Assembly (NCBI GenBank): GCA_947166705.1
Contig: CAMVFE010000023.1
Location: forward strand, 1-34,766
Source: an uncultured Clostridia bacterium
Lineage (GTDB): Bacteria; Bacillota; Clostridia; Christensenellales; Aristaeellaceae
Reading direction: 5' to 3'
DNA length: 34,766 bases
Both the position numbers and the translations under genes were made by a program. Below the pieces are notes generated by a model. The model ran no database searches. It was not told where the DNA came from and worked only from the letters and a program-made list of their open reading frames with translations. This document shows positions 14,238-34,766 of the stretch, one piece after another. Position 1 is the stretch's first letter. Each line of letters starts with the position of its first letter.

Positions 14238-14289
14238 TTTTCTCTCCCCCGGCCTTGATGTTTTCAGGCTGTCGTACGCAGGCGGATAT

Positions 14290-14829: not shown

Positions 14830-14904
14830 GGGAATCCTTCCTTTCTTTTCTGTCCTTTGGAGGACTTTGTTTCCCGCCGGTTCCCCGGCCGGGTTCTTTC
14901 CGGG

Positions 14905-14945
14905 ACAGAAAAGACCTGTCCCAGTTATTTTGCTGGGACAGGTCT
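14905..14945 (-). terminator. regulated terminator of the T-box leader
   Basis: AGACCTGTCCCAG (14912-14924) and CTGGGACAGGTCT (14933-14945) form a perfect 13-bp stem with an 8-base AT-rich loop, followed on the minus strand by TTTTCTG. Confidence 0.92.
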
Positions 14946-15175: not shown

Positions 15176-15179
15176 CGGG

Positions 15180-15208
15180 ATCATAACATAGCTTTTTACC
15201 ATTTTCAA
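15180..15208 (-). promoter_or_regulatory. promoter of the T-box/trpP operon
   Basis: TTGAAA (15203-15208), 17 bp, TATGAT (15180-15185) on the minus strand. Transcription would start near 15173, giving a leader of about 270 bases before the terminator, the usual T-box length. Confidence 0.8.
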
Positions 15209-15325
15209 GAGGTTTTTGGCCCCCGGATTGTTTTTGCTGTGTATTCCCTCACCGGAGAGGGAAGGTCCCCCGATTCCTCTTCCCCGCTGTTCTTCTGAAA
15301 CCGTGCTTTCGGCGGCGCGTTTTCC

Positions 15326-15354
15326 TTGACAGCCCGGGCTGTCCGTAGTACATT
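15326..15354 (+). promoter_or_regulatory. promoter of the dehydrogenase operon with 16-bp palindrome
   Basis: TTGACA (15326-15331), 17 bp, TACATT (15349-15354). A perfect 16-bp palindrome, GACAGCCC/GGGCTGTC (15328-15343), covers the end of the -35 box and most of the spacer and is a good operator candidate. The last spacer bases CTGTCCGTAG plus TA are shared with the promoter at 24210-24238. The leader to the first start codon is about 170 bases and contains further hairpins (for example GCCGG-CAGGG with CCCTG-CCGGC around 15436-15480). Confidence 0.6.
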
Positions 15355-15529
15355 GTTCCTGAGCTTTCAGATGTCAGATTATTTCGGGCGTAAACGCCGG
15401 ACGGATTATTTCTGCCGCGGTTTCTTTCATTTTTTGCCGGCAGGGACGGTATCGTGCCTTTTGCCCTGTTCCGGCCGCGGGCCAGGTTCCGGCGTCCTGA
15501 AATGATCTATGAAAAGGAGGTCCCAGATC

Positions 15530-16741: not shown

Positions 16742-16754
16742 GGAGGAACCACAG

Positions 16755-17780: not shown

Positions 17781-17805
17781 CAAATCCGGAAGGGGGATTG
17801 CCTTC

Positions 17806-18675: not shown

Positions 18676-18747
18676 AGGCGCGGGCCGGGCCCCGTCTGAG
18701 CAAGTCTCCGGGAAGCCTGGAAAGGCCGCTTCCGGCTGCCCTCAGAG

Positions 18748-18777
18748 TTGACACCGGGGGCGATGCCGGAATAAAAT
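18748..18777 (+). promoter_or_regulatory. promoter of the MATE transporter gene
   Basis: Perfect TTGACA (18748-18753), 18-bp spacer, TAAAAT (18772-18777), followed by the MATE start about 47 bases downstream. Confidence 0.7.
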
Positions 18778-18823
18778 ACCCCTGAGAAATGTTTTGCTCT
18801 TACATTGCGGGGATATGAAGCAC

Positions 18824-20170: not shown

Positions 20171-20229
20171 GGAGGGAGGAAAAACCGCGCCGCGACGTCC
20201 GGTCTCTGATCCCCATACCTGGTTTTTTT

Positions 20230-20253
20230 CGGCACATTGTCAGCGCTGTGCCG
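20230..20253. promoter_or_regulatory. inverted repeat before the Gfo/Idh/MocA gene
   Basis: CGGCACA (20230-20236), ten bases, TGTGCCG (20247-20253), forty bases upstream of the oxidoreductase start; a run of seven T lies just before it. It may be an operator for the following genes or part of a weak terminator for the MATE gene. Confidence 0.35.
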
Positions 20254-20293
20254 GGAGAATAAACAGCACCCCAAAGTCAAGGAGGATTGAACC

Positions 20294-21463
20294 ATGGAAC
20301 GCAAAGTCAGGACAGCGGTTATCGGATGCGGTATGATCAGCAAAATCTACATCAAGAACCTGAAGAACCTGTTTTCCATCATTGACCTGGTCGCCGTGGC
20401 CGACCTGAACCGGGCCGCGGCGGAGGGAAAAGCCGCCGCCTATGGTGTGGAGCGTGTCATGACCATCGATGAGGTTGCCGCCGACAGGGATATCGAACTG
20501 GTCATCAATCTGACTCCCGCTTTCGTACACTATGACATCATCCGGCGGATGCTGGAGGCCGGAAAGCATGTCTGGACCGAGAAAACCCTGACCGTGACGG
20601 TGGAACAGGGGCGGGAGCTGGTGGCGCTGGCCGATGAGAAGGGGCTTTATCTGGGCGTCGCGCCCGACACCGTGCTGGGCGCCGGAACGCAGACCGCGCG
20701 CCGCGCGCTGGATACGGACATGATCGGAGAGGTGACCTCCGGCGTGGCGGTCATTAACCGCAATCAGTCCCTGAACGCCGAGGTCTTTACCTTCCTGCGC
20801 GGGAACGGCGGTTCCCTTCCCTTCGATGTCGGAGTCTACTATATCGGTACGCTGATCAGCCTGCTGGGTCCCGTGGAATGCCTGCACGCCTTCGGCGCCC
20901 CCGCCAGGCGCCATGAGCCGGAGTTCCTCTTCCGCAACGCGGAAGCTGAGCCCTGGACGATTCCCGGAAGCAACCTTGTCAGCGCTTCCCTGAAGTTCGT
21001 TTCCGGAGCGCTGGTCAGCGTTCATTTTGACGGCAACACCATCGGCGCGGAGCAGCACAACATCACGCTCTTCGGAACCCGCGGCATTCTGAAGGTCGGC
21101 GACCCCGACAAATTCAACAGCCCGGTTTCCCTGATCTACGCGGGCCAGCCGGAATGCACGCTTCCCTTCACCCATGGCTATGACGGCCAGAACACGGTCG
21201 AGGCAACGCCCTTCGACTTCTACGGCCACAGGGGCGTCGGCGTGGCGGAAATGGCCTACGCCATCCGTCAGGGCCGTCCCAACCGCTGCAGCAAGGAGTA
21301 CGGCCTGCACTGCCTCGAGATCCTTGCCGGCATGGAACAGTCCGTCCTCTCCGGTGAAACCGTGAAAATAGAGTCCCGCTTCGACATGAAGCCGCTCGCG
21401 CCCGGTTATTATTCCGGCTTTGGCTCCGGCCGCGGCGACGCTGAAATGTCTCTGGTTCACTGA
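20294..21463 (+). CDS. Gfo/Idh/MocA family oxidoreductase
   Basis: A 389-residue NAD(P)-dependent oxidoreductase. N-terminal Rossmann fold VIGCGMISKIYIKNL (near residues 9-23) and a typical VINLTPAFVHYDIIRRMLEAGKHVWTEKTL, where the EK in the loop is the catalytic-Lys motif of the family; the C-terminal part is a beta-sheet domain ending in IESRFDMKPL. Likely substrate is an inositol- or glucose-like sugar or sugar derivative. AGGAGG is seven bases before the ATG. It opens a group of three plus-strand genes (this gene, the TIM/propeller fusion, the FMN enzyme) with 77- and 96-base gaps. Confidence 0.88.
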   Translation: MERKVRTAVIGCGMISKIYIKNLKNLFSIIDLVAVADLNRAAAEGKAAAYGVERVMTIDEVAADRDIELVINLTPAFVHYDIIRRMLEAGKHVWTEKTLTVTVEQGRELVALADEKGLYLGVAPDTVLGAGTQTARRALDTDMIGEVTSGVAVINRNQSLNAEVFTFLRGNGGSLPFDVGVYYIGTLISLLGPVECLHAFGAPARRHEPEFLFRNAEAEPWTIPGSNLVSASLKFVSGALVSVHFDGNTIGAEQHNITLFGTRGILKVGDPDKFNSPVSLIYAGQPECTLPFTHGYDGQNTVEATPFDFYGHRGVGVAEMAYAIRQGRPNRCSKEYGLHCLEILAGMEQSVLSGETVKIESRFDMKPLAPGYYSGFGSGRGDAEMSLVH

Positions 21464-21540
21464 GAGTCCGCCCGCGGTCGCGTTCCCTCCGGGGTCGTCC
21501 TGCCGGAGCGCTCCTGATTTTGAGAAAAGAGGACATCTGC

Positions 21541-23175
21541 ATGAAAATCGGCATCAATCTCTACGGGTTCCTCCTGAACCGCCGTGACACGCTTGCCGCC
21601 CTGAAGGAATTGCGGGATCTGGGTTACAGCAGCGTGGAGCCCTGTATCGCGCCGTCGTCCTTTGAGGGGCTGGAGCACGTCTTCTGGCCCGCGGACTGGC
21701 TGAAGGAACATATCGGGGAGATCCGCGTCCTGGGGCTGGAAGTTTTTTCCGTCCATCTCGTCGGCTGGAATCCCGCCCTTCAGCGCCAGGCGCTGAAGGA
21801 ACTGGCGGCCGCCTGCGGCATCCGGCATTTTGTGGTCAAAAGCCCGGAGGACCTGAGCGCAGTTTCCCTGCATGAGACGGCGCTGGCTTATACCATGCTG
21901 GCCGAAGTCCTGGCGGAAGCCGGGGCGGAGCTCCTGATTCACAACGAGCGGAACGACATCGCCGCCCGCATCGGGGAGAAGACCGCTTTCGAGCATCTGA
22001 TCGGCCTGTGTCTGGGCACGGTGGGCGCGCAGGTGGACGCCGGCTGGGCGCTGGCCGGCGGCGAGGATCCGGAAAGGCTGCTCTGGCGGTTGGGAAACCG
22101 GGTCCGCAGCCTGCACTACAAGGACTTTTCCATGGGCGGCGGCGAACCCGTTCCCGCTGTGCCGGGCCGGGGCAGCCTGAATATTTCCGCCTGCCTTCAG
22201 TTTGCCCGCTTCAGCGGGATTCCCCAGCTGGTGGATCTGGACGCCTTCGGCCCGGATCCCGCGGCGGATCTGACGGAAAGCCTGCGCGCCCTGGCTTTCC
22301 GTACCCAAGAGCGGGAGCCCTCCGTCAGCTTTCTCAACATCCTGGACGTGGAGACCGGGGAAATCCGAACCCTGCGCCGTTTCGACCGCGTAATCGAGGC
22401 GCCCAACTGGCTGAAGAACAGCCGCGCCATGATCTTCAATTCGCAGGGAAGGATTTATCGCTACGACCTGGACACCGGCGCGGAGGCCATGATCGACTCC
22501 GGGGACTGCGACAGCTGCAACAATGATCATGTGGTTTCCCCGGATGAATCGATGATCGCTGTCAGCTGCGGAAGCCGGGGCGGCGGCTTCACCTCCCGGA
22601 TCTATGTGCTGCCGGCCGCCGGCGGCGAGCCCCGTCTGGTGACGCCCAACACCCCCAGCTTCCTTCACGGCTGGTCCCCGGACGGAAAGGAATTTGCCTA
22701 CTGCGCCTTCCGGGACTGCGGCGGCGTTCAGTCCGTGGATATCTATACCATTCCCTTCGAAGGCGGCGAGGAAAAGCGTCTGACCTTCGAGGGCTTCAAC
22801 GACGGTCCCGAGTACAGCCCGGACGGGCGGCACATCTGGTTTATCTCCACACGAACCGGGCTGATGCAGGTCTGGCGCATGAACCGGGACGGCAGCGGGC
22901 AGACCCAGATGACCTTCACCCGCAGAAACAACTGGTTCGGCCACGTATCCCCCGATGGGAAGAAGGTCGTCTACCTCTCCTACGGGCCCGACGATCTGGA
23001 GCCGGCGGAGCATCTTCCCAATATGCGGGTCCAGCTGCGGATCATGAACGCGGACGGCAGCGATGACCGCAGGCTCCTGACATTCTTCGGCGGCCAGGGC
23101 TCCATCAACGTGAACAGCTGGGCCGGAGACAGCCGGCACATCGCCTTCGTCAGCTACGAGCTTCTCCATCCCTGA
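21541..23175 (+). CDS. fusion: xylose-isomerase-like TIM barrel + TolB-like beta-propeller
   Basis: A 544-residue protein with two parts. Residues about 1-255 look like a sugar phosphate isomerase/epimerase (AP endonuclease 2 / xylose-isomerase-like TIM barrel): MKIGINLYGFLLNRRDTLAAL and DLGYSSVEPC at the start, a central LLIHNE and DAGW, and HYKDF near the metal site. Residues about 260-544 form a WD40-like/PD40 (TolB-type) propeller with at least four clear PDGK/SPDG repeats (SPDGKEF, SPDGRHI, SPDGKKV). No signal peptide, so it is cytoplasmic. The start ATG has AAAAGAGGA before it; an earlier TTG is rejected. I know each fold but not this fusion. Confidence 0.8.
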   Translation: MKIGINLYGFLLNRRDTLAALKELRDLGYSSVEPCIAPSSFEGLEHVFWPADWLKEHIGEIRVLGLEVFSVHLVGWNPALQRQALKELAAACGIRHFVVKSPEDLSAVSLHETALAYTMLAEVLAEAGAELLIHNERNDIAARIGEKTAFEHLIGLCLGTVGAQVDAGWALAGGEDPERLLWRLGNRVRSLHYKDFSMGGGEPVPAVPGRGSLNISACLQFARFSGIPQLVDLDAFGPDPAADLTESLRALAFRTQEREPSVSFLNILDVETGEIRTLRRFDRVIEAPNWLKNSRAMIFNSQGRIYRYDLDTGAEAMIDSGDCDSCNNDHVVSPDESMIAVSCGSRGGGFTSRIYVLPAAGGEPRLVTPNTPSFLHGWSPDGKEFAYCAFRDCGGVQSVDIYTIPFEGGEEKRLTFEGFNDGPEYSPDGRHIWFISTRTGLMQVWRMNRDGSGQTQMTFTRRNNWFGHVSPDGKKVVYLSYGPDDLEPAEHLPNMRVQLRIMNADGSDDRRLLTFFGGQGSINVNSWAGDSRHIAFVSYELLHP

Positions 23176-23271
23176 TCCTCTTTCGGTCCAGGCCGCATAT
23201 CCTTTCATTCCCGGAACCTGTCCCTGATGGCCTGCCGATCAGCAGCCCTGACAAAGAAGGAGGAAAACATC

Positions 23272-24156
23272 ATGAACAACCCCCATGCCAACTCCGATGC
23301 GATTGCCCGCAAGTATCTGGATTCTCTTGTGATTGAGCAGCGCGTCCTCGGAGCCGTAACTCCCAGCGCGAAAGTCACCTTCCTGGGCAGGGAATATGAA
23401 ACGCCCATCATGACCGGCGCCCTGAGCCATCTGAAGAACGGCATGGCCGGCTATGCCGAAGGCGCGCGTCTGGCCGGCGCCGCGGCGTGTATCGGAATGG
23501 GTGATAATGAGGTGCTGGGAGCCTGCCTGGATACCGGAGCCAGCGTCGTCAAGATCATTAAGCCCTATGCCGATCGGGATGAAATCTTCTCCCGCCTCCG
23601 TTTCGCCGAGGAACACGGCGCAATCGCCGTAGGCATGGACAGCGGCCATGCCATCAAGCCCGAATCCCCTGCCTTCGACACCATTGTGGGCAGCCCCATG
23701 AAGCTTCCCACGCTGGACGAATTGAAAGAATACATCTCCTCAACGAAGCTCCCCTTCTTCTTCAAGGACATTCTCAGCGTGCAGGACGCGCTGCTGGCCC
23801 GGGAAATCGGCGCCGCGGGCGTCATCCTCAGCCACCACCACGACCTGATGCACTGGGCTGTTCCCCCGATCTTCCTGCTTCCGGAAATCCGCCGGGCCGT
23901 CGGGAATGACTTTATCCTGATCGCCGACGGCGGTATTGAGGACGGCTTCGACGCCTTCAAGGCGCTGGCTCTCGGGGCGGACATGGTCTGCACCGGGCGC
24001 GCGCTGATGGGGCCCTATGCGAAGGAAGGCGCCCAGGGCGTCGCCGCTGCCCTTCGGACCATGACGGACGAGCTGCTGTCCATGATGTACCGCACGAACG
24101 CCGCGGATGTGAAGAGCATCGATTCCTCGGTGATCCACGAAGCCCGCTGGCTTTGA
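23272..24156 (+). CDS. FMN-dependent alpha-hydroxyacid dehydrogenase-like protein
   Basis: A 294-residue TIM-barrel flavoprotein of the FMN_dh family (lactate/glycolate oxidase, LldD). The C-terminal part FILIADGGIEDGFDAFKALALGADMVCTGRALMGP is the phosphate-binding and FMN motif of the family, and FFFKDILSVQDALLARE holds the strand-6 Lys. The catalytic SNHGGRQLD motif is changed here to ILSHHHDLMHW (near residues 186-196), so the His is there but not the Arg, and the reaction could differ from normal 2-hydroxyacid oxidation. GGAGGA lies eight bases before the ATG at 23272; a longer open frame upstream is not used. Shorter than the usual 350 residues. Confidence 0.7.
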   Translation: MNNPHANSDAIARKYLDSLVIEQRVLGAVTPSAKVTFLGREYETPIMTGALSHLKNGMAGYAEGARLAGAAACIGMGDNEVLGACLDTGASVVKIIKPYADRDEIFSRLRFAEEHGAIAVGMDSGHAIKPESPAFDTIVGSPMKLPTLDELKEYISSTKLPFFFKDILSVQDALLAREIGAAGVILSHHHDLMHWAVPPIFLLPEIRRAVGNDFILIADGGIEDGFDAFKALALGADMVCTGRALMGPYAKEGAQGVAAALRTMTDELLSMMYRTNAADVKSIDSSVIHEARWL

Positions 24157-24774: not shown

Positions 24775-26763
24775 ATGCCGTTCACTGCTGAACCCTCCGC
24801 CCTGCAGAAGGATTGCATTCGCAGCTGTGAGATCTATCTGAAATACCTGGAAGAAAACCGTGAAAACGGAAAGGGGCTCCTTCGCGCCCAGGTCAGAAGC
24901 TCCCAGGCTTCGCTGCTCGACAGCAGCGTGACGCTGCAGCTGGACCGGGAAATCCGCGGCGCCGACGGAATCAAGCTCCGAATCGGCGGCGCGGTCTACG
25001 AAAACACGGAGGATCAGACGCTTTTCCTCGTGCAGAGCGTGGACCGCCGTCGGATTTCCCTCATCCCTTCTCCCGAACTGACGGAGCGGCTGGCCGGCGC
25101 GGAAAGCGTGGGAGAGAAAACCTTCGTGGAAATTGATCTGACCTTTCTGGTCAGCCGGATCAGGGATTGGTACAAAAAGCACGGCGGGGAAATCGAACTC
25201 CCCTCCTTCCGGTCCGGATGCCGCCTCGCTCCCGATAACCCCATCATGCTCAGCGACGAACAGTACAGCTGCGCCGAGACGGCGATGTCCCATCCCCTTT
25301 CCTATATCTGGGGGGCTCCGGGAACGGGAAAGACCAAGCATGTGCTGGCCAGCTGCGTGTACAGCTGCATTCAGGCCGGGAAAAAGGTGATCCTCGCAGC
25401 CCCGACCAACAACGCGCTCGAGCAGAGCCTGGAAGGCCTGCTCCGGGCCCTGGCTGAAGCGGGAATCAATCCCGACGGGCAGGTCCTGCGGATGGGATAT
25501 CCCAGCGAGAGCTTCCGGGCTGCCTGGCCGAACATCTGCGAGGCCGGGGCTTACCGATACCTGAAATCCCTGGACGATGAGGAAATCGGCCGCCTGAACT
25601 ACGAAAACAGGCTCCTGGAGGAAAGTCTGAAAGTCCGCGCCGGAAGGGCGGAGGCAGGCATGGAGGACCGGTATCCGAAGGCCGGCGCGCGGTCTGTGAA
25701 AGTACAGATCAAAAAAAACGCGGAAAGGCTTGCCGCGCTTCTGGCTCAGAGCCATGGCATGGCGGAAGGCGGGAATGTCCCGCCGATGATTTCGCGGTTC
25801 GCCGTGATCGCCTGCACCGTGGATGCCTGCATCTACCGTCTGCCGCCCGGGGGCGCCTTCCGGCCCGACCATGTGTTTCTGGATGAGGCGGGCTACTGCA
25901 GCGTCATAAAGGGGCTGCCGCTGACCGCCTTCGGCTGTCCGCTGACCATGCTGGGCGATCACAGACAGCTCCCTCCGGTCTTTGACTGTGAGGACCGGGC
26001 TTTGCTCCAGGATCCCGAAAAGCGCATCATCCGGCTCTGGCAGATCAGCACGCTGTATCTGGAGGATACCGTAGAGGATGAGCGCAGAGCCCGGCTCTGC
26101 TTCCGCGAGCCCGACCTCCCGTCCTTCAGCCGGACGGAAGCCTGCGCTCTCCGGGAAACCTACCGGTTCGGTCCTTCGCTGGCGCGGATCCTGGCCGGCA
26201 GAGTATACGGGCGTCAATTCCGCAGCCTTGCCGCGGATGAAACCCGCATTCTGTATGTCAGCGCGCCGAAAAGCGAGGAAGACAAAGGGCGTGATGCATC
26301 CGGCGAATACAGGCGGATCAGCGTCAGCGAACGGAAATGCATCCTGTCGCTGATGGAGCGCAACCTGTCCCATTGGGGCTATTCGGTCGGAATTCTCACG
26401 CCCTATGCCAAGCAGCGGAATCTGCTGGCTTCCGGTCTGAACCGGCTGATGAAAAAGTACGGACGGCCGGACGACATGGACGACGACGTGGTCACCGTAC
26501 ACCGTTCCCAGGGCAGGGAATGGGATGTCGTTCTGTTCAGCGTCACGGATTCCTTTGATGAGAAGTGGTCAACGAATTCAGCCAGGCCGGACGCGCTGAA
26601 GCTCATCAATACCGCAGTGAGCAGAGCCAGAAAGCTGCTGATCCTCGTGGGAGATGCGGCGGACTGGATGAAGCGTGACGGGCAGCTGATCACGGATCTG
26701 TTCCGCGCCGCGCGGGAAGTGAATCCGGATATTCTGTTCGACCGCTTCCTTGATCCAGGCTAA
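24775..26763 (+). CDS. superfamily 1 helicase (DNA2/NAM7/Upf1-like)
   Basis: A 662-residue SF1B helicase. N-terminal region of about 160 residues without known motif, then Walker A WGAPGTGKT (near 180-187), motif II DEAG (near 370; most relatives have DEAxQ), motif III LGDHRQLPPV (near 395), a C-terminal half with VTVHRSQGREWDVV (motif V, near 572-585) and NTAVSRARKLLILVGD (motif VI). It would unwind DNA or RNA; whether it belongs to repair or to defence cannot be told, since no nuclease domain is visible in or next to it. The start has AAGGAG eight bases upstream. A small GC hairpin lies over the stop codon (26752-26775). Confidence 0.88.
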   Translation: MPFTAEPSALQKDCIRSCEIYLKYLEENRENGKGLLRAQVRSSQASLLDSSVTLQLDREIRGADGIKLRIGGAVYENTEDQTLFLVQSVDRRRISLIPSPELTERLAGAESVGEKTFVEIDLTFLVSRIRDWYKKHGGEIELPSFRSGCRLAPDNPIMLSDEQYSCAETAMSHPLSYIWGAPGTGKTKHVLASCVYSCIQAGKKVILAAPTNNALEQSLEGLLRALAEAGINPDGQVLRMGYPSESFRAAWPNICEAGAYRYLKSLDDEEIGRLNYENRLLEESLKVRAGRAEAGMEDRYPKAGARSVKVQIKKNAERLAALLAQSHGMAEGGNVPPMISRFAVIACTVDACIYRLPPGGAFRPDHVFLDEAGYCSVIKGLPLTAFGCPLTMLGDHRQLPPVFDCEDRALLQDPEKRIIRLWQISTLYLEDTVEDERRARLCFREPDLPSFSRTEACALRETYRFGPSLARILAGRVYGRQFRSLAADETRILYVSAPKSEEDKGRDASGEYRRISVSERKCILSLMERNLSHWGYSVGILTPYAKQRNLLASGLNRLMKKYGRPDDMDDDVVTVHRSQGREWDVVLFSVTDSFDEKWSTNSARPDALKLINTAVSRARKLLILVGDAADWMKRDGQLITDLFRAAREVNPDILFDRFLDPG

Positions 26764-26845
26764 ATAGCCCGGATCCGCAGGACTCAGGCAAAATATTTTT
26801 TGATTTATTTTACCAAAACAACATTGGATTCTGAGGACAAACGCT

Positions 26846-27412
26846 TTGGACAGGAAGGCATTGCTCAGGTACTTGTCTGCATTGCTGCTCTTTGGCCTCA
26901 ATGGCATCGTAGCAAGCCAGATTGCGATGAGCAGTTATGAGATCGTGTTTTTAAGGACGATGATCGGCAGCGGCAGCACCTGGGGACTGTTTTGCGGTGC
27001 CATGTCGGCCTTGATGTACTTTTTCATGGTGACCCTGAACAAACAATCCCGCCGGATCACCGGTCTGGAAAACGCAGTGATTCAGCTGACTGTCAGCTTT
27101 CTTACTGTTGCTGTATTTGTTGGATTCAGGCAGGCTTTCGTCCTTCATGTTCCGGAAGGTGCATGGCCCTGGATATTGATTCTCGGCATTGTGAATACCG
27201 GAATAGGATGCTATCTGTATTTTTCTCCGCTGGCAAAGCTGCCTGTTCAGACCGTTGCGATCTGTGGATACCTTGAACCGCTTTCTGCGGTGGTTTTTGC
27301 GGCGATCCTGCTGAATGAAAGGATGACCATGATCCAGATTGCCGGTGCAGCCTGTATTATTGGCGGTGCCATGGTTGGCGAACTGATTAAGCCAAAGCAT
27401 CCTGACGTATAG
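26846..27412 (+). pseudogene. EamA-type transporter with internal deletion
   Basis: The 188-residue frame starts with TTG (GAGGA about ten bases before) as MDRKALLRYLSALLLFGLNGIVA, runs through SSYEIVFLRTMIGS, then directly joins GSTWGLFCGAMSALMYFFM. In normal EamA/DMT transporters of about 290-300 residues these two segments are separated by about 100 residues containing helices 2 to 5; all of that is missing, while the C-terminal EamA domain (NTGIGCYLYFSPLAKLPVQTVAICGYLEPLSA) is complete. The join lies on a tandem GGCAGC GGCAGC (26966-26977), the kind of short repeat left by recombination. The frame is kept, so a short product may be made; six helices would remain. Probably inactive. Confidence 0.75.
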
Positions 27413-27869: not shown

Positions 27870-29189
27870 TCAATTCAATGTGAAGCGCATCGTGTAGACC
27901 TTAAATCCGCTGTAGAAGAAATCCAGCGTGTAGTCTCCCGGCGGATAGCCGCCGAATTTCTCCAGCAGACGATATTCATCGTGAAAGATGTTCAGGAAGG
28001 TGTATTTTGCGTCTCCATACATGAGTGACTCTTTGATGAAGTTCATGACGTGGAAGCCGGGTCCGCTCAACATCTCGGAAAACGATAGCCACCTCGCGTC
28101 GGGATAATACTGCTTCTCCCAGTTTATACGGTACATTATATCGTCCGTTTGTTCCACGAGGATCTCTTCCCCCAGAAACGCTTCCGACTCATTTTCGGCC
28201 CACTGCCGCAGCAGATCGTTCAGTGCCTGCGCGGATGTAGGCGCATATTCGCTGGCATACTTGTGTACTGTCTGCAAATCGCTATTGAGGCGCGCATCTG
28301 AGCATGCTTTCCAGCCATTAACGGTGTTCCACTTCAAGAGCTTAACATCCGTAACGGTAAAGGGCGGCGCGTCCGGGCTTTCCTCGAAGAAATAAGGCTC
28401 GGACGCCCAGTAGGCGCTGCTCTCGAACATCGTCGCCGCATTCACGAAGAAAGCGGTGTAGCAGCCGGGAATCACTTCCAGCGTCACCGTGTCCTCCGGC
28501 GGTTTAACGACCACCTGGTCCCTGGGCAGGATGTACAGCATGGCGGTGCCGGGCGGCTGATACTGAATAAGTCTCTCCGCATCCTTGTCCGGGCCGAGGC
28601 AATACCAGTAGATGTTGTACCTGTCTGCGGGCTGGTTGATCTTTAACTTTATCGTTGCAGTACCATTACGATTGTCCGTCACAGTGTCGATCATCACTGC
28701 AGGCTCGGCCTGTGGTGCTTCCGTGGCATGCGGTTGAGGTGCGGCTTCGGGTTGCGACGCTGCTTCGGGTTGTGCTGTCGGTTCAGACGTCTCGATCACC
28801 GCCAGCGGCTCCACCGTTGGCTTGTTTGCCTCCACGCTCTTTACGTAGTTGTCGGCCAGGAACCTTCCGCCCAGGGCAGCCAGAACGACGATCAGGATCG
28901 CTATCCAAACACCGCCCTTCTTCTTTTTCTTCGGCGGTTCCGGGGCAGGCGGGGGCGGTGGCGCGTAGGCTGTTCTACTCTCCTTCACCGGCTCGGGGCG
29001 GAGCGCTTCGGGTTCGACTCTGCGCTTCGGCGGCGTATAGGTTTTGGGCATTTCCGCCGTCGATGGGGTTTTTACGGCGGCATCCGCCTCGTCTCGCCTG
29101 CCGTCGCCGCAGATTTCGCAGACCGTGTTCTGCCAGTCGTTCAGCCCATCGCAGTACGGGCAGCGCCAGCGCTTGTTCTCTTCGCTCAT
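27870..29189 (-). CDS. membrane-anchored RanBP2-type zinc-finger protein
   Basis: A 439-residue protein, last gene of the island. N-terminal zinc finger W8-x-C10-PY-C13-x10-C24-EI-C27, the RanBP2/NZF pattern with N17; then a Pro/Lys-rich stretch of about 60 residues; one membrane helix (about residues 92-112, GGVWIAILIVVLAALGG); a Glu/Pro/Ala/Gln-rich linker; and an extracellular domain of about 270 residues with unknown fold (RYNIYWYCLGPDKD, YPPGDYTLDFFYSGFKV). The finger is therefore on the cytoplasmic side. AGGAG eight bases before the ATG at 29189 decides the start over a GTG nine bases earlier. The 82-base gap to the previous gene is the widest in the operon. Confidence 0.75.
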   Translation of the reverse strand: MSEENKRWRCPYCDGLNDWQNTVCEICGDGRRDEADAAVKTPSTAEMPKTYTPPKRRVEPEALRPEPVKESRTAYAPPPPPAPEPPKKKKKGGVWIAILIVVLAALGGRFLADNYVKSVEANKPTVEPLAVIETSEPTAQPEAASQPEAAPQPHATEAPQAEPAVMIDTVTDNRNGTATIKLKINQPADRYNIYWYCLGPDKDAERLIQYQPPGTAMLYILPRDQVVVKPPEDTVTLEVIPGCYTAFFVNAATMFESSAYWASEPYFFEESPDAPPFTVTDVKLLKWNTVNGWKACSDARLNSDLQTVHKYASEYAPTSAQALNDLLRQWAENESEAFLGEEILVEQTDDIMYRINWEKQYYPDARWLSFSEMLSGPGFHVMNFIKESLMYGDAKYTFLNIFHDEYRLLEKFGGYPPGDYTLDFFYSGFKVYTMRFTLN

Positions 29190-29271
29190 AGTTCCCACTC
29201 CTGTATGATCTATAATGGATCAGTCGTTCAGCACACGCTGCTCTTGTATTGAGAAAGAGCTCTCAGAGACA

Positions 29272-30393
29272 TCAGAGCCTTCCATAAGCATAGTCGCTGA
29301 ATGTATAACCCTTGTCGGTATCGGTCAGTTGATTGCCAAAGCCAAACAAGCTCAGGTTGTATTTGACAAAGTGATTGAAATCATACTTGCCCTTTAGGAA
29401 AAACTGGTATTCGGTTTCGCCTTTGCCCAGATCCCAGGTCGCGTCAAGGTAGTAACACTTGCCGCCCAACTTGACAAAGTTCCAGGCGTGGGTCGAACTG
29501 GTCACCACGCGCGCCTCCAGCCCGGCGGTGTTCGCCATGTAATAGAACAGGTCTGCGACGCCGGCGCAAACTGCCGTGTGATTCTTCAGCGCCGCATAGC
29601 CGGTGTATTTCAGCGTATAGCCGTCGTCGTTCAAGTGCGCTTCATCATAGGTCACATTCGAGCAGATGTACTTGTAAATCGCGCGCACCTTTTCGTAGTC
29701 GGACATGCCGTCGACGCGCAGCTGCGCCAACACCTTTTTGACAGCCGTATCAAACTCTTTATCCTGCTCGGCAGTGGTATAATACTCGGTCTTGATGCTC
29801 AGGTTCAGGGTCTGCAGCTCTCTGATTCCCTGCTTGGTGAGATAGCTACGGCGTTCGACGGGGCTGCACACCAGCGCGAGATGATCGCCGTGGCGTGGGT
29901 CGCCGTCATAGGTGAAGGACGCCTTCTGCATCTTCATCATGACGTCGTCCGACAGGAGGTTCAACGCGAGCTTGGTCTCTCCGGCCTTGTAGGGGGACAG
30001 TTCTCCCTTAAAGCCGTCTACGTTGAAGGCAACGATGACCGGGGATTTGTGGTCGACCATTTGGGTCGCGGCGGCTTTTCCGGCGGAAGCGTAGTCCGTA
30101 TAACCTTCGCCGACAAAATTGTCGCCGATCCAAGAGACGACCGCCCAGATGAAGACGGCAATCAGCGCAACGGAGAGCAGCCTGTTGATCGGCCCCGGCT
30201 TCTTTTTCGGGCTTTCCGCTGAGGGGGCAGAGGCTGTCCTGCCGTCGAAAGCGGTCGGTGTAAAGTTTCCTCCGGGTGCGCTGCTGTCCGAAAAGGTCAG
30301 CTTTGCGCCGCAGTTCACACAAAAGGCATCGCCAAGCTCCGTCTTTTTGCCACAATTGGGGCAACAGCCGCCGCTCATGCGAAAATCGCTCAT
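29272..30393 (-). CDS. zinc-ribbon, membrane-anchored transglutaminase-like protein
   Basis: A 373-residue protein. Cytoplasmic zinc ribbon CCPNCGKKTELGDAFCVNCG (Cys11, Cys14, Cys25, Cys28), low-complexity linker, one membrane helix (about residues 72-89, LLSVALIAVFIWAVVSWI), an extracellular domain, and a transglutaminase-like cysteine-protease core with the triad Cys276 (HTAVCAGVADLFYYM), His302 (STHAWNFV) and Asp317 (YYLDATWD). Such domains act as peptidases or cross-link proteins or peptidoglycan-bound proteins. GGAGG eight bases before the ATG. Fourteen bases after the previous gene. Confidence 0.82.
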   Translation of the reverse strand: MSDFRMSGGCCPNCGKKTELGDAFCVNCGAKLTFSDSSAPGGNFTPTAFDGRTASAPSAESPKKKPGPINRLLSVALIAVFIWAVVSWIGDNFVGEGYTDYASAGKAAATQMVDHKSPVIVAFNVDGFKGELSPYKAGETKLALNLLSDDVMMKMQKASFTYDGDPRHGDHLALVCSPVERRSYLTKQGIRELQTLNLSIKTEYYTTAEQDKEFDTAVKKVLAQLRVDGMSDYEKVRAIYKYICSNVTYDEAHLNDDGYTLKYTGYAALKNHTAVCAGVADLFYYMANTAGLEARVVTSSTHAWNFVKLGGKCYYLDATWDLGKGETEYQFFLKGKYDFNHFVKYNLSLFGFGNQLTDTDKGYTFSDYAYGRL

Positions 30394-30407
30394 GGATGTC
30401 GCCTCCG

Positions 30408-30824
30408 TTATAGCTTCGCGCCGCAGTTCACGCAGAATGCATCTCCGGGCTCAACCTTCGTGCCGCACTTGGGGCAAAAGCCACCCCTTGTCGCCGCTGG
30501 ACGTGCGTCCGTCGAGGTCGCCGCCGAAGAGGCGACGTAAGTCGCTGACGCGGTCGCCGCAGGTGTGGCAGTAGCTCGCATCTTATCATACTTGCGCTGA
30601 GCCAGCCAAGCCGCCAGTTTCCAAAGGGCGATGCCCACGACCGCAAAGACCGCCGCGACGAGCAGGCTTTCGCCCAGCGAGTCGTTTTCGCTGCGCATGC
30701 CCTCCCAGTTGAATACATAGCCCACTGAAAAGAAGAGCGCGATAATGAAGCAAAACGTTGCCATGAAACTGACACAAGTGGCAAGCGGGGCCTTTTTATA
30801 GCGCCGGAAAAATACAGGGATCAT
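30408..30824 (-). CDS. two-helix membrane protein with C-terminal zinc ribbon
   Basis: A 138-residue protein: short N-terminus (MIPVFFRRYKKAPL), two membrane helices (about residues 15-37 and 54-72), an Ala/Thr-rich linker of about 40 residues and a C-terminal zinc ribbon GFCPKCGTKVEPGDAFCVNCGAKL that ends the protein. With both ends cytoplasmic, the ribbon faces the cytoplasm. The start at 30824 has GGGAGGA before it; a TTG 18 bases earlier is not used. The family is not one I can name beyond zinc-ribbon domain-containing membrane protein. Confidence 0.72.
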   Translation of the reverse strand: MIPVFFRRYKKAPLATCVSFMATFCFIIALFFSVGYVFNWEGMRSENDSLGESLLVAAVFAVVGIALWKLAAWLAQRKYDKMRATATPAATASATYVASSAATSTDARPAATRGGFCPKCGTKVEPGDAFCVNCGAKL

Positions 30825-30845
30825 GTAAAGATCCTCCCTCAAGCA

Positions 30846-31439
30846 TCATTCCTTGATCTTTGCGCCACAGTTGACACAGAAGGCATCATCCGGTTCCACT
30901 TTCGCTCCACACATTGGGCAAAAGCCATTGGAAACGCCCGAAGATGCCGCGTGAGGCGCACCGGATACCGCAGCGGCATTCCCAAAGAGATGCGCCCGCT
31001 TGTTGTAATAAATCCTGTTTACGATGATCATCACGACGCTTGATACGATGGAGGTGAGCGTCTGCGAATTCGCCAGATCGCCGATGGGTCTTTTGATCGT
31101 GCTGGATACTGCGATCATGTACCCCAGGAAAGCGGCAAGCTGAACCACATAGGCGATGGTCAGCTTATTGGGCGCACCTTCTTTGAAACCGGCCAGTTGG
31201 AAACGCACATAGATGAGCAACGCAGCGGTGATAAGGTAGAGCACGCCGAAGATGCTGTCCACAGATTTTAAGCCTCCGTAGACCCGATACACCTGTTCGG
31301 CGGTGCCATCGGCGCCATAGATGCTGCCGGTCAACAGTTGTATGGCACTGGCAACGCATAAGATCGCGCCGGCCCACAGGCTGAAATAGATGAGAAACTT
31401 GTGCCATTTCATCGGCATATCATAGCTGTTGGTATTCAT
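30846..31439 (-). CDS. four-helix membrane protein with C-terminal zinc ribbon
   Basis: A 197-residue protein with four membrane helices (about residues 13-35, 60-80, 90-110, 125-145), a short linker and a C-terminal zinc ribbon GFCPMCGAKVEPDDAFCVNCGAKIKE. The ribbon is nearly the same as that of the next gene (30408-30824), but the membrane parts are not alike. Even helix number puts the ribbon in the cytoplasm if the N-terminus is also inside. AAGGAG seven bases before the ATG. 11 bases after the 103-residue zinc-ribbon gene. Confidence 0.72.
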   Translation of the reverse strand: MNTNSYDMPMKWHKFLIYFSLWAGAILCVASAIQLLTGSIYGADGTAEQVYRVYGGLKSVDSIFGVLYLITAALLIYVRFQLAGFKEGAPNKLTIAYVVQLAAFLGYMIAVSSTIKRPIGDLANSQTLTSIVSSVVMIIVNRIYYNKRAHLFGNAAAVSGAPHAASSGVSNGFCPMCGAKVEPDDAFCVNCGAKIKE

Positions 31440-31450
31440 AAGTATCTCCT

Positions 31451-31762
31451 TTACAAGTCGCCAGGGTCAGAGAACCACTCGTCGAATTGTCCGTTGGAGC
31501 TGCTGGATTTCGTCTCTCCCATCGTGACGACCAGCTTCGGAGCCTCCACCGTCTCCGTCGGCGGCACGTAGATGACGGACTTTCCAGAATCATCCCGCAT
31601 CAGTAGCGTCTTGACCTCCTCGACGGGCGTCGAAGGCTTCGCCGATTCGACGGACTTGGCGGGGGGCGTCGCCGCGGCAACCGCTGTCGGCGCGGGCGCG
31701 CCGCATTTGGCACAGAACTTTGCTCCCGTCCTCAGTTGCGTTCCACACTTTTTACAGAACAT
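31451..31762 (-). CDS. soluble zinc-ribbon protein with Ser/Thr/acidic tail
   Basis: A 103-residue soluble protein starting MFCKKCGTQLRTGAKFCAKCGAPAP, a zinc ribbon at residues 3-21, followed by a linker rich in Pro, Val, Thr and Ser and an acidic, Ser-rich end (KSSSSNGQFDEWFSDPGDL). No membrane helix. The tail has many Ser/Thr and is the sort of peptide a Ser/Thr kinase could modify, but that is inference. The frame is open upstream, but GAGGAGGGG before the ATG at 31762 decides the start. It lies 13 bases after the vWA gene and 11 bases before the membrane ribbons, so it may link the two halves. Confidence 0.72.
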   Translation of the reverse strand: MFCKKCGTQLRTGAKFCAKCGAPAPTAVAAATPPAKSVESAKPSTPVEEVKTLLMRDDSGKSVIYVPPTETVEAPKLVVTMGETKSSSSNGQFDEWFSDPGDL

Positions 31763-31775
31763 AGCTATCCCCTCC

Positions 31776-32453
31776 TCAAATGCTGTTGCAGATCGCATCG
31801 ACGATCTCCTTGTAGGTGTACTCCGCCAGGCCTTTTCCCGCCGTGGACGGATAGTGTATGACGTTGTTCCAGGTAGAAGTGATCTGCTGCCAGTACGGAG
31901 CGTTCGGTGCGAACAGCACCAAGCGCTTGGCGGCATTCTTGATGTAGGGCTCCATCTGGCTGTCGCCCCACCACTGGGTCAACTCGTTGAAATCCCTGGG
32001 CATGCCCTTGGGATACTTGAGCTGATCCTTGGCGTAGCCGATCTCATGGGTGGAGGCGTCCGTCCAGACCACGATGACGTTTCGCCGCTTGGTGCCCTCC
32101 TTGGTCCAGTCGGAGCGAATGGCGTAGGCCAGCGCCTCCAGGCCGTCCTCTGGCTCGTCGCCGCCACCCTTAGCCTCGATGCTGTTGATCGCGGCCTCAA
32201 ACTGCGCGGCCTGAGCGGGCAGATCGAAAAACTTGCTGACCATCATCGGTTGCTCATCGGCCACGTAGTCGCGGAACACGATCACGCGCACCCGCATGTT
32301 GTCCAGGCTCTTCTGCTTGCGCGCCATCTCCTCGGTCACGTCCTTGTAAAAAGACAGTGCGTTTTCCTTCACCTTGGAGATGACGGGGCCCATGCTGCCT
32401 GTCGCGTCGATGCAGAAGCACATATCCACGTTGTAAGTCATCTTCAGTGCCAT
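31776..32453 (-). CDS. von Willebrand factor A domain protein (TerY-like)
   Basis: A 225-residue single-domain vWA protein. The MIDAS motif is DATGSM at residues 16-21 (D-x-T/S-x-S form), and the later metal ligands are in GGGDEPEDGLEAL (near residue 96) and VVWTDAST (near 127-134). The length and the single domain are as in TerY-type vWA proteins. These form a triad with a PP2C phosphatase and a Ser/Thr kinase. It probably acts as a metal-dependent scaffold in the cytoplasm. It lies 27 bases after the kinase; AAGAAACATGG-type site GGAGGAAAG lies before the ATG. Confidence 0.85.
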   Translation of the reverse strand: MALKMTYNVDMCFCIDATGSMGPVISKVKENALSFYKDVTEEMARKQKSLDNMRVRVIVFRDYVADEQPMMVSKFFDLPAQAAQFEAAINSIEAKGGGDEPEDGLEALAYAIRSDWTKEGTKRRNVIVVWTDASTHEIGYAKDQLKYPKGMPRDFNELTQWWGDSQMEPYIKNAAKRLVLFAPNAPYWQQITSTWNNVIHYPSTAGKGLAEYTYKEIVDAICNSI

Positions 32454-32480
32454 GTTTCTTTCCTCCTGTATGCTTGGTCG

Positions 32481-33395
32481 TTATATCAAATCGCCCGCGG
32501 GCATGAGATACGTTTCAACCGTCTCGCTTTCGGCAGCGTTCGCCGTGCCCTTCAGCACGCTCTCCGCAGCGTCCAGGCTGATGCGTACCTCCGGGTCAGC
32601 CTTCAGCATTTGGCAAATCAGCCGCCGCCATTCGCTGGGCATCTCCTCCGCGACGGAAAGCTCCATGCCGTCCAGCGCCGCTTCAAAGGGATAATCGTAT
32701 TGCGCCGTATCAAACCCCGGCGTTCGCCCGGTAAAGATTTGGTGGAATACGATGCCCAGTGCGAATACATCAATGGCCCGGCCGATCGTACCCTCCTCCG
32801 TCTGCATTATCATGAAGGTCTCCGGAGCCATGTATACCAAATCGCCGTGAATCTCCTCGTCTGGGCGCGGTGGCTGCTTTTCCCAGAAACAGCTGTCAAA
32901 ATCGGTCAGCTTGCCTGTCACTTTACCTGACGGCAGACGGCGGAAGAGTATGTTATCCAACTTGATGTCCGCGTGTACGATGCCAGCTTTGTGTAAGCCG
33001 CTCAGGCAGTGCACCAGCGCTTTACACACCCGCAGCTTGTCCTCCTCGGTGATGCGCTTCACCTGGTCGATGCCGATGGCGTCCACCTTTTCCATGACCA
33101 GGTAATAGTGGCTGCCGCAGCGGAAGAAATCCTCAATGTAAATCAAATTGCCGTCGGAGCAATCGTTGATGGCGTGATACAGCAGCCTGCTCCTGTCCTC
33201 AAACTGCTGGCAAATGTCCCGCTTGCGGGCCAGTACCTCCGGGCTCAGCAGCCCCACGTCCACGGGATAAACCGGGTCGATCAGTTCCTTGATGAACACC
33301 TTCTTGCCACCCTTTTCCGCGAAGCCCCACTTGGAAAAGCCGCTGTTGGTGGTTTTCAGCTCGCCGTTCAATAGGTATCCGTTGATTTCTTTCAT
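32481..33395 (-). CDS. Hanks-type Ser/Thr protein kinase, TerY-P type
   Basis: A 304-residue cytoplasmic kinase without membrane helix or PASTA repeats. Conserved parts: VFIK with the ATP Lys36, then a PVYPVDxGLLSPEVLARKR segment, catalytic loop HADIKLDN (residues 141-148, HAD in place of HRD), DFD (165-167, in place of DFG), an APE segment MAPETF and DVFALGIVFHQIF. The Gly loop is weak (TTNSGFSKWGFA). The order, FIKExxxPVYP with an RKR segment, resembles the kinases of TerY-P triads. Start: ATG at 33395 with GAGG six bases upstream, two bases after the phosphatase stop. Activity is likely because Lys36, Asp143, Asn148 and Asp165 are all present. Confidence 0.88.
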   Translation of the reverse strand: MKEINGYLLNGELKTTNSGFSKWGFAEKGGKKVFIKELIDPVYPVDVGLLSPEVLARKRDICQQFEDRSRLLYHAINDCSDGNLIYIEDFFRCGSHYYLVMEKVDAIGIDQVKRITEEDKLRVCKALVHCLSGLHKAGIVHADIKLDNILFRRLPSGKVTGKLTDFDSCFWEKQPPRPDEEIHGDLVYMAPETFMIMQTEEGTIGRAIDVFALGIVFHQIFTGRTPGFDTAQYDYPFEAALDGMELSVAEEMPSEWRRLICQMLKADPEVRISLDAAESVLKGTANAAESETVETYLMPAGDLI

Positions 33396-33397
33396 GT

Positions 33398-34480
33398 TCA
33401 ACCTCTTTCAGAACCGTCATCATTGCCGGACATCATACTTTCATAGTCGGATTTATAGGCCTCCCACTGGTCAAAGAGCGCTTCCTCTGACTCCACCCGC
33501 GGGTAATTCCCTTCGATAAATACCAGCCGATCGCGGAAGGCTCGTTTCATCTCCCGGAAATCATTGAAGCGATGCGGCCACGCGATCAACGTGTAGTCGT
33601 CGCCGGATACGCGACCAATTTGCGCGTCAAGCCTGCGCTTCCATTCTTCGATGCCGGAGGATTGCGCCATGGTCTTCAGCAGAAGCCTTTCAAAGGCCAT
33701 TGGCGAGGGCAGATATCCAAAGCAGCCATCCGTCGCGGCGAATATCACTGCGGGCTGACTGATTTTCAGCCGTTTTTCATGGAGCTGGAAGGGCTGGGAG
33801 GCACTGGCGACGTTGGTCATCGGCGCGTCCTCCCGCAGGTTGCGCATGGCATCTTGTATGGCAACATCGTCTGCCGTCACCTGATGGAGTCCGTCCGCGT
33901 CCAAGACATAACACCGCGAATCTCCGCACCAATAGAAGTCGGCAAAATCGCTCTCAATTTCCTTGCAAAATGCGGCGACCGTCGTTGGGAACTCTTTGCT
34001 CAGGTTGCCCAGCAGCACCTGCCTAGCAGGTTCATGGGATTTGCACGCTTGCAGGGCATTGTTCAAGCAGGCCGACAAATCGGAATCCTCTTGAGCATCC
34101 TCGAATGAAGCTGACAGAAACCATTCCCGTGCCGCAATGGTCGCGGCCCTTGAGGCCGCCCAAGCGCCGGTATGCCCGCCAAAGGAGGCGTATGTCTTCC
34201 CTCCGCTGCCGCCGCAGCCATCGAATACACCGAGAAAGACATATTGCCCTTCCCGTGCCGCCAAAAATGAATCCTCGCAGCGATCCTTCACCTGTGCCCG
34301 ATAGACGACCAGCATCTGCTTGTCGTCCGTCGAACCGGGCGTGTCCCGCAGCAAGGAATACAATTCGTTCTCGGCAGGTTCACATTGCGCCGTGTCCTCC
34401 CGCTCTTTTCCCAAGCCCATATTGCCGCGCCTGATAGGCGCCAGCTTTGAGAGCTTATTCAAAATCTTATCTATTTCCAT
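33398..34480 (-). CDS. PP2C-type protein phosphatase
   Basis: A 360-residue metal-dependent Ser/Thr phosphatase. PP2C motifs in order: CEDSFL (metal Asp), VFDGCGG (metal Asp-Gly), YWCGDSRCYV, IFAATDGCFG and SGDDYTLI (metal Asp). About 55 residues lie before the catalytic domain and about 50 after it, with no membrane helix. It would reverse the action of the kinase that follows two bases downstream. ATG at 34480 is taken as start with a poor ribosome site (GAGTG); an in-frame GTG at 34489 is the alternative. First gene of the eight-gene island operon. Confidence 0.87.
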   Translation of the reverse strand: MEIDKILNKLSKLAPIRRGNMGLGKEREDTAQCEPAENELYSLLRDTPGSTDDKQMLVVYRAQVKDRCEDSFLAAREGQYVFLGVFDGCGGSGGKTYASFGGHTGAWAASRAATIAAREWFLSASFEDAQEDSDLSACLNNALQACKSHEPARQVLLGNLSKEFPTTVAAFCKEIESDFADFYWCGDSRCYVLDADGLHQVTADDVAIQDAMRNLREDAPMTNVASASQPFQLHEKRLKISQPAVIFAATDGCFGYLPSPMAFERLLLKTMAQSSGIEEWKRRLDAQIGRVSGDDYTLIAWPHRFNDFREMKRAFRDRLVFIEGNYPRVESEEALFDQWEAYKSDYESMMSGNDDGSERG

Positions 34481-34523
34481 CCAGTACACTCTATCAATTC
34501 GTCTTCATCCAAAGCAAGTCGGG

Positions 34524-34684: not shown

Positions 34685-34766
34685 CAATAATATCCAAAAT
34701 TAGTTTTCATAATTGTTGGTTTGTCAAACATAGGTTACACATTTTCCCTGTAGCAGGGTCAAGGCA

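What the first reader, a model, noticed from the sequence alone, without database searches (positions are those of the whole stretch)
27870..34489. Kinase-phosphatase-vWA triad fused by operon to a membrane zinc-ribbon set
Eight minus-strand genes with gaps of 2, 27, 13, 11, 21, 14 and 82 bases encode a PP2C phosphatase, Ser/Thr kinase, vWA protein, soluble zinc-ribbon protein, two membrane proteins with C-terminal zinc ribbons, a membrane transglutaminase-like protein with a zinc ribbon and a membrane RanBP2-type finger protein. The first three form the known TerY-P type triad. The rest suggests a pathway in which phosphorylation in the cytoplasm is passed through zinc-ribbon contacts to membrane and outer-surface effectors. 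No TerD, TerC or TelA-type gene is in the window, so it is not a standard tellurite cluster. The flanks are AT-rich with a deleted transporter nearby, which fits an acquired stress or defence island.
Basis: partly seen in the sequence, partly recalled or inferred. Interest (0 to 1): 0.9.

Follow-up and report, generated by a model that had tools for sequence, protein, structure and literature searches.

The report
Tail-tagged kinase and zinc-ribbon surface operon
A gut bacterium carries a mobile signalling operon in which a protein kinase and a small zinc-binding protein end in the same short peptide, suggesting an address label that wires changeable cell-surface proteins to one switch.

Summary
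The eight minus-strand genes are real, at the stated coordinates and gaps. PP2C, kinase and vWA form a TerY-P-like triad by composition, but in one comparison the vWA and PP2C had no detectable similarity to TerY or the PP2C of plasmid R478. The zinc-ribbon genes do belong with the triad: operon neighbours carry zinc ribbons in 161 of 297 cases versus 31 of 594 other genes (90 loci). One clade has the triad alone. New here: kinase and soluble zinc-ribbon protein share a C-terminal tail (window: YLMPAGDL and WFSDPGDL). A motif model trained only on kinase tails finds it in 37 of 288 operon partners against 4 of 562 outside genes. It finds both window tails even with the window's clade left out of training, and tail variants match within loci. 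Of 20 selected partners, 9 carry PASTA, subtilase, LRR or thermolysin-like domains, so envelope signalling fits better than phage defence. The vWA–zinc-ribbon block was recently exchanged between genera. What binds the tail is untested: structure prediction never completed.

The parts
33398..34489 (-). PP2C phosphatase
   Evidence: Pfam PP2C_2 1.2e-11; motifs FDGCGG, GDSR, ATDGCFG, SGDDYT located
32481..33401 (-). Ser/Thr kinase; ATG start at 33395
   Evidence: Pfam Pkinase 8e-27; motifs FIKEL, HADIKLDN, TDFDS located
32484..32510 (-). kinase C-terminal tail YLMPAGDLI (motif M2)
   Evidence: score 11.6 with a model trained on kinases outside the window clade
31776..32453 (-). vWA protein with MIDAS-like DATGS
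   Evidence: VWA_4 5.7e-12; 100% amino-acid identity to G192
31451..31762 (-). zr1: soluble zinc-ribbon protein with long linker and conserved tail
   Evidence: Zn_Ribbon_1 8.6e-9; alignment A3 of six sequences
31517..31534 (-). motif M1 (LVVTMG) in zr1
31454..31477 (-). zr1 C-terminal tail WFSDPGDL (motif M2)
   Evidence: score 13.3 with the leave-clade-out model
30846..31439 (-). zr2m: membrane protein with C-terminal zinc ribbon
   Evidence: Zn_Ribbon_1 2.5e-8; 3 hydrophobic segments
30408..30842 (-). zr3m: membrane protein with C-terminal zinc ribbon; ATG at 30824
   Evidence: Zn_Ribbon_1 4.9e-9; 2 hydrophobic segments
29272..30393 (-). tg: N-terminal zinc ribbon, one TM, transglutaminase-like ectodomain
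   Evidence: Transglut_core 3.9e-11, Zn_Ribbon_1 2.8e-6; Cys/His/Asp motifs starting at 274, 301, 314
27870..29198 (-). rbp: RanBP2-type finger, TM, variable ectodomain; ATG at 29189
   Evidence: first 116 aa 94% identical to a G192 homologue, remainder 30%
29050..32449 (.). block 97.5-100% identical (200-base windows) to a genome of another genus
34714..34766 (.). repeat at the contig edge, found at the ends of four other contigs and beside a transposase gene in G218
   Evidence: transposase named by eye
26846..27412 (+). EamA transporter remnant flanking the operon
   Evidence: EamA 2.8e-19, one match

Best explanation
A horizontally moving envelope-signalling module. The cytoplasmic core is kinase, PP2C and vWA. 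The kinase and the soluble zinc-ribbon protein zr1 end in the same tail, apparently disordered (aromatic-x-x-A/P-G-D-L). In related loci, tails of this kind also sit on membrane partners. I infer that the tail is a docking tag: every tagged protein binds one common site in the core, most likely the vWA domain (possibly its metal site, through the conserved Asp). zr1 and its relatives would then bridge, through their zinc ribbons, to membrane proteins whose cytoplasmic zinc ribbons or fingers connect to interchangeable outside domains (here a transglutaminase-like domain and a variable domain). Kinase and phosphatase would switch this assembly to sense or remodel the cell surface. Shown by sequence: gene set, co-occurrence, shared tail, covariation of tail variants, near-confinement of the tag to these clusters in the genomes tested, ectodomain diversity, inter-genus exchange. 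Inferred: tail disorder and binding, its receptor, zinc-ribbon bridging, topology, phosphorylation flow, envelope function.
For: Tail model from kinases only: 37/288 operon partners vs 4/562 outside genes, vWA 0/91, PP2C 0/81, odds ratio 20.6, p=1.9e-14. Leave-clade-out model finds the window kinase and zr1, while 0 of 99 other window-clade genes exceed 6. Eight held-out regions: in the four with a close vWA, 4/4 kinases carry the tail, 4/4 have zinc-ribbon neighbours, 3/4 have a tagged zinc-ribbon partner. Tail similarity within loci exceeds all 10,000 permutations (32 loci) and all but 7 of 20,000 with 18 hand-thinned loci. Genome-wide, an AGDL-type tail pattern lies at cluster genes in 27 of 35 matches in 23 genomes, the other 8 not in plausible genes; a wider pattern fitted to zr1 in seven window-type genomes lies in the clusters in 9 of 14. 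23 genomes without the triad give 11 matches, none in a plausible gene. Zinc ribbon in 161/297 operon partners vs 31/594. Surface-type domains in 9 of 20 selected partners.
Against: No structure or binding test ran. Only 27 of 50 tail-kinase loci have a partner above threshold, and over all partners the rank test is not significant (p=0.12). Six loci whose kinase was classed without the tail still have a tagged protein (in L101 it is the split-off kinase end). Loci overlap in ancestry, and the hand-thinned set still holds up to four loci of one clade. Motif M1 and the first tail regex were defined after seeing both protein sets. Two of the 50 kinases classed as tail-bearing (L106, L131) look doubtful by eye. 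'Plausible gene' was judged by frame length and composition by eye; one outside match in the window's own genome sits in a 413-codon frame that I judged a wrong-frame reading.
Confidence: 0.5

Rival explanations
1. The tail docks on zinc-ribbon domains rather than on the triad core: kinase and zr1 both bind membrane zinc ribbons, and zr1 chains to itself or its neighbours head to tail. (The rivals are not all exclusive of one another.)
For: Tail-type kinases go with zinc-ribbon partners (47 of 50 loci) and the solo clade lacks both (0 of 16). L084 keeps both tails without a PP2C gene detected in its 13.6-kb contig, so PP2C need not be the receptor.
Against: Five outgroup loci (L045-L048, L050) have zinc-ribbon partners but kinases without the tail. 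Some tagged proteins lack a zinc ribbon themselves.
Confidence: 0.25
2. The tail is an autoregulatory or substrate-like segment that binds the kinase itself, so tagged partners are simply kinase substrates.
For: The tagged partners lie beside a kinase gene; tails are often preceded by Ser/Thr-rich stretches and some by an LKSTMRT-like motif.
Against: The commonest form of the tail core (FKPAGDL) has no Ser or Thr; partner tails match their own locus's kinase tail variant, which a generic substrate site would not need. Not directly tested.
Confidence: 0.15
3. The island is an anti-phage defence system of the TerY-P kind.
For: TerY-P was reported to act against T7-like phages (PMC7699616 passage); the locus is accessory and mobile; a related triad sits beside integrase-like genes in MT836186; the kinase matches PADLOC kinase models, best mad6 2.1e-27 and PD-T4-6 7.4e-22.
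Against: No TerY similarity; no nuclease domain among the eight operon proteins; the other seven proteins match no PADLOC model, and the kinase falls far below NCBI's cut-off for MAD6 (63.7 vs 460 bits); partners carry outward-facing wall and surface domains.
Confidence: 0.12
4. The C-terminal tail is a shared degradation tag that keeps kinase and partners at matched levels.
For: It is C-terminal and in its commonest form ends in a hydrophobic residue.
Against: Variants end in D, E, Q or W, and the AGDL-type pattern was found on no plausible protein elsewhere in 23 genomes, unlike a general degron.
Confidence: 0.05
5. The zinc-ribbon genes are unrelated neighbours on a gene-rich mobile island.
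For: The triad occurs alone in one clade; satellites vary much in number and family.
Against: Strong enrichment (odds ratio 21.5, p=1.6e-61), a zinc-ribbon partner in 62 of 90 loci, and the shared tail.
Confidence: 0.03

Closest known systems
TerY-P triad (TerY-like vWA, PP2C, Ser/Thr kinase)
   Same: Same three domain types side by side; accessory distribution
   Different: Window vWA and PP2C show no phmmer match (and the vWA profile no match) at E<=10 to R478 TerY, second vWA or PP2C; the kinase has no fused zinc ribbon or OB fold, the zinc ribbon is a separate tailed protein; membrane satellites with ectodomains
TerY-P of type II/III-A CoCoNuT systems (PMC11090510, passages seen)
   Same: vWA + PP2C + kinase with a zinc ribbon, there fused to the kinase
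   Different: No McrB-like GTPase, helicase or nuclease among the eight operon genes here; a superfamily 1 helicase lies further left
Kinase + PP2C + vWA theme in GAP1-N2 GTPase systems (PMC7159879, passages seen)
   Different: No such GTPase among the 18 window ORFs scanned; described there as restricted to actinobacteria
Herpetosiphon pHAU01 triad Haur_5138-5140
   Same: vWA (profile E=3e-85), PP2C (1.1e-37) and kinase (1.7e-46) are homologous, in a nine-sequence comparison
   Different: No zinc-ribbon neighbours annotated (not scanned); the kinase ends in MDL without the aromatic AGDL tail
PASTA kinase (PknB/PrkC) signalling, recalled
   Same: Ser/Thr kinase linked to wall-facing domains; one partner here has PASTA repeats (L119)
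   Different: The outside domains sit on separate membrane proteins, not on the kinase

Membership tests
TerY-P triad | vWA, PP2C and Ser/Thr kinase genes adjacent | tested here: met
TerY-P triad | vWA homologous to TerY | tested here: not met
   no match at E<=10 to R478 TerY or its second vWA, by phmmer and by a profile of 12 relatives; one reference plasmid only
TerY-P triad | kinase fused to a C-terminal zinc ribbon or OB fold (as described in PMC11090510) | tested here: not met
   kinase of 306 aa matches kinase-type Pfam families only; zinc ribbon is a separate gene
TerY-P triad | kinase homologous to the TerY-P kinase | tested here: inconclusive
   R478 kinase cut at the edge of the fetched stretch
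TerY-P triad | antiphage activity | not testable with these tools
   needs plaque assays
Tellurite (ter) cluster | TerD, TerC or TelA-type genes nearby | tested here: not met
   none among 18 window ORFs scanned with Pfam; not all ORFs of the window scanned
PADLOC anti-phage systems | system-specific component models | tested here: not met
   only the kinase matched (34 models, best mad6 2.1e-27); seven other proteins none
Tail-tagged triad group (proposed here) | kinase and a zinc-ribbon partner share the aromatic-xx-AGDL-type tail | tested here: met
Tail-tagged triad group (proposed here) | tail binds a common receptor | not tested
   structure prediction did not complete; no binding assay

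The most novel reading that the evidence does not exclude
Gut Clostridia use a peptide-address system: a C-terminal tag shared by a kinase and by otherwise unrelated zinc-ribbon and membrane proteins plugs interchangeable surface sensors and effectors into one vWA/PP2C/kinase core, and the modules, vWA included, are swapped between genera.
Probability: 0.5. Interest if true: 0.8.

Novelty: new variant of a known kind. Interest (0 to 1): 0.68.

Why it matters
Kinase/PP2C/vWA triads are known mostly from gene neighbourhoods, with little idea of what they act on. A shared tail gives a concrete, cheap handle: it names likely client proteins from sequence alone, predicts one binding site, and can be tested by changing eight residues. 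If right, it is a bacterial example of adaptor-by-short-motif signalling, and it links cytoplasmic phosphorylation to swappable cell-surface proteins in gut and rumen bacteria.

Tried and rejected
Viral contigs: 86 pattern matches, none a relative by tblastn. Plasmid DNA search of the whole operon: no match; phage DNA search: only MT836186, 12% covered. Solved structures: no match for the vWA. The zr1 profile in 396 order-level genomes matched 291, mostly over the common zinc-ribbon part, so it says little about zr1 itself. Literature searches for a shared tail or this gene set found nothing on point. The key TerY-P paper PMC4104200 is not held; I know it only through other papers' passages and recall. 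Repeats were sought within each flank separately: short ones on the left only; a repeat shared by both flanks was not tested. No tandem repeats.

The first alignment mixed strands and was discarded. Alignments A4 and A5 had misplaced rows and were replaced by A7 and A6. I first took a match on a second contig of G675 for a second kinase copy; it is a 244-base contig-end overlap (99.6%) with the L116 locus.
Full report
OBSERVATION. The eight genes lie on the minus strand as described, with the stated gaps if internal ATG starts are used. Pfam confirms PP2C_2, Pkinase, VWA_4, four Zn_Ribbon_1 proteins and Transglut_core; the last protein has no Pfam match but carries a RanBP2-type finger pattern.

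WHERE IT SITS. The window is a whole contig (C23) of an incomplete genome (73 contigs, 71% complete). The vWA was found in 33 of 300 family genomes including the own one; no other genome of the same genus appears among the matches, and 20 same-genus genomes are listed without one. Flank 14000-24000 has its best matches (81-82%) in same-genus genomes; all 20 genomes tried match it somewhere, the best of another genus at 75%. The operon's best match is a genome of another genus, G192. Against G192, 200-base windows from 29050 to 32449 (rbp start through vWA) are 97.5-100% identical, the kinase 80-89.5%, PP2C 61-64.5% over the windows measured, and the rbp ectodomain does not align as DNA. The rbp protein is 94% identical over its first 116 residues and 30% beyond. 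So the vWA plus zinc-ribbon block moved recently between genera, and the ectodomain diversifies. The right edge of the contig is a repeat also at the ends of four other contigs of this genome and beside a transposase gene in a same-genus genome (transposase named by eye). A chimeric contig is made unlikely by the diverged kinase and PP2C and by the same-genus left flank, but is not excluded.

DISTRIBUTION. In the window and five loci of two related genera, triad and zinc-ribbon genes run together; zr1 is in all six, the transglutaminase gene only in some, and PP2C is missing from one (L064, the same contig as L084). A genome-contig scan kept 80 loci of 179 relatives. With ten loci from the genome search and the window I used 91 loci, 90 of them in the operon counts; some are near-copies. 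Elsewhere the family is sporadic: 10 of 393 genomes at class level and only the own genome of 398 at phylum level at E<=1e-30. Zinc ribbons occur in 161 of 297 same-operon partners (same strand, gaps under 250 bases) against 31 of 594 other genes (odds ratio 21.5, p=1.6e-61), zinc ribbon plus TM in 126 of 297 against 17 of 594. Of 50 loci whose kinase scores above 8 for the tail, 47 have a zinc-ribbon partner; of 16 solo loci none; of 20 others 14; of 4 without a usable kinase 1. The solo loci fall in one clade of 21 rows (SH-aLRT 100, quick tree).

THE SHARED TAIL. Window kinase and zr1 end in YLMPAGDLI and WFSDPGDL. In six zr1 sequences the zinc ribbon and this tail are conserved and the linker is not. 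A position model trained only on kinase C-termini scored above 8 for 37 of 288 operon partners, 4 of 562 outside genes (three of those four are same-strand cluster neighbours that my gap rule left out), 0 of 91 vWA and 0 of 81 PP2C. Over all partners the rank test is not significant (p=0.12), since most partners have no tail. The training set included the solo kinases, so I repeated it on 42 kinases outside the window clade: window kinase 11.6, window zr1 13.3, seven other zr1 proteins 7.8 to 17.1, none of 99 other window-clade genes above 6. Tagged non-triad proteins above 8 number 40 in 34 of 81 loci, in 17 homology groups after removing the tail; one is a split kinase end and one probably chance. 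In locus L107 the tail ends six proteins including the kinase, with 35 synonymous and 13 non-synonymous pairwise codon differences, so the peptide and not copied DNA is kept.

COVARIATION AND CONFINEMENT. Within-locus kinase-partner tail similarity is 16.0 against 10.1 +/- 1.0 permuted, 0 of 10,000 (32 loci, three near-copies dropped); with 18 loci thinned by hand from the tree, 7 of 20,000, though some clades there keep two to four loci. Loci whose kinase ends in an FD type have FD partners in 3 of 4 cases against 1 of 28 (p=0.003). The pattern [F/L/W/C]xxAGD[L/F]-stop (in DNA it also admits TGG at the end) matched 35 times in 23 genomes with the triad: 26 at cluster genes by position or peptide, one a contig-end overlap of such a gene, eight elsewhere, of which three end in TGG and five sit in frames of 17-69 codons (two of the three TGG cases judged from the matched letters only). 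The reversed-pattern control gave none. This pattern does not fit the window's own tails, so I ran a wider one, Fxx[A/P]G[D/N][L/F]-stop, on seven window-type genomes: 14 matches, nine in the clusters including the window's zr1; five elsewhere, in frames of 16-71 codons and one of 413 codons whose composition looks like a wrong frame; reversed control two. In 23 genomes without the triad the first pattern gave 11 matches, three with F or W and a true stop, in frames of 30-82 codons that I judged non-genes by eye; the reversed control gave six there. Solo kinases end instead in a NGLSRFMKK-like tail; that pattern matched 11 times in 18 solo genomes, each at the position of the kinase itself.

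HELD-OUT CHECK. Ten new regions were fetched; two have the contig lengths of known loci (L096, L107) and were dropped. Of the remaining eight (seven genomes), the four with the strongest vWA scores (E<=5.5e-103) have 4 of 4 kinases with the tail, 4 of 4 zinc-ribbon neighbours and 3 of 4 a tagged zinc-ribbon partner. The four more distant ones have no tail.

A SECOND MOTIF. An LKSTMRT/LVVTMG-like stretch upstream of the tail also recurs: kinases 18 of 87, partners 13 of 288, outside 4 of 562 (p=3.6e-4). I defined it after seeing both sets, so it is weak.

WHAT THE PARTNERS DO. I scanned 20 large partner proteins of my choosing. Nine carry surface-type domains by my count: PASTA (1), BspA-type LRR (2, one also with Big_2), subtilase (4, one also with SH3_3), LRR with FHA (1), thermolysin-like (1); others match WG, TPR or NPCBM, zinc ribbons only, or nothing. 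FHA matches lie on three membrane proteins, two subtilases and one LRR protein; the L098 one is below Pfam's cut-off. Most zinc-ribbon membrane partners have the ribbon before the first hydrophobic segment (88 against 37). This looks like surface sensing or remodelling. FHA domains, which read phosphothreonine (recalled), fit a phospho-signal reaching membrane proteins.

MECHANISM. Shown: gene set, association, tail, covariation, mobility. Inferred: tail docking, most likely on vWA; zinc-ribbon bridging; phosphorylation of partners. Clues on the receptor: L084 keeps tails without a detectable PP2C gene in its contig, while L148 in the solo clade lacks both PP2C and the kinase tail; these are single cases pointing different ways for different tails. 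Structure prediction to decide this could not be completed.

COMPARISON. By composition it resembles the TerY-P triad, but the vWA and PP2C do not match the R478 TerY-P proteins, and the kinase lacks the fused zinc ribbon described for TerY-P in PMC11090510 (passages). PMC7159879 (passages) describes an actinobacterial kinase-zinc-ribbon, PP2C and vWA set next to GTPases. PMC7699616 (passage) reports TerY-P activity against T7-like phages. I found no paper on the shared tail in nine searches, in an open-licence library that lacks most subscription journals; I saw listings and start of abstracts there, not the papers.

Noticed in passing
window 24775-26763 +: Superfamily 1 helicase (AAA_11/AAA_12) left of the operon; 24775-27412 has almost no DNA match in the same-genus genomes searched, so the island may extend left to include it.
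   Followed up: partly
window 23227-24156 +: FMN-dependent dehydrogenase matching only the C-terminal part of the Pfam model (203-349 of 350).
   Followed up: no
L045-L048, L050: Outgroup triads with zinc-ribbon partners; in L046-L048 also a HerA/VirD4-like ATPase (named by eye). Their kinases lack the tail, and in L045, L046, L048 and L050 a zinc-ribbon partner ends in a DDL/DDM-like tail.
   Followed up: partly
L183 (MT836186.1) 109-2783: A record filed as phage holds a PP2C-kinase-vWA triad beside two integrase-like genes, a MazF-like gene and repressors (named by eye), like a mobile element; its kinase tail is the same as that of F. prausnitzii locus L109.
   Followed up: partly
L186 3026-4966: R478 TerY and the second vWA of its ter cluster both end in a PPPPPE...VL tail, another shared C-terminal peptide, though these two are paralogues.
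   Followed up: no
L098, L100, L101: Membrane proteins joining an FHA match to a subtilase (L098, L101) or LRR (L100) domain beside the triad.
   Followed up: no
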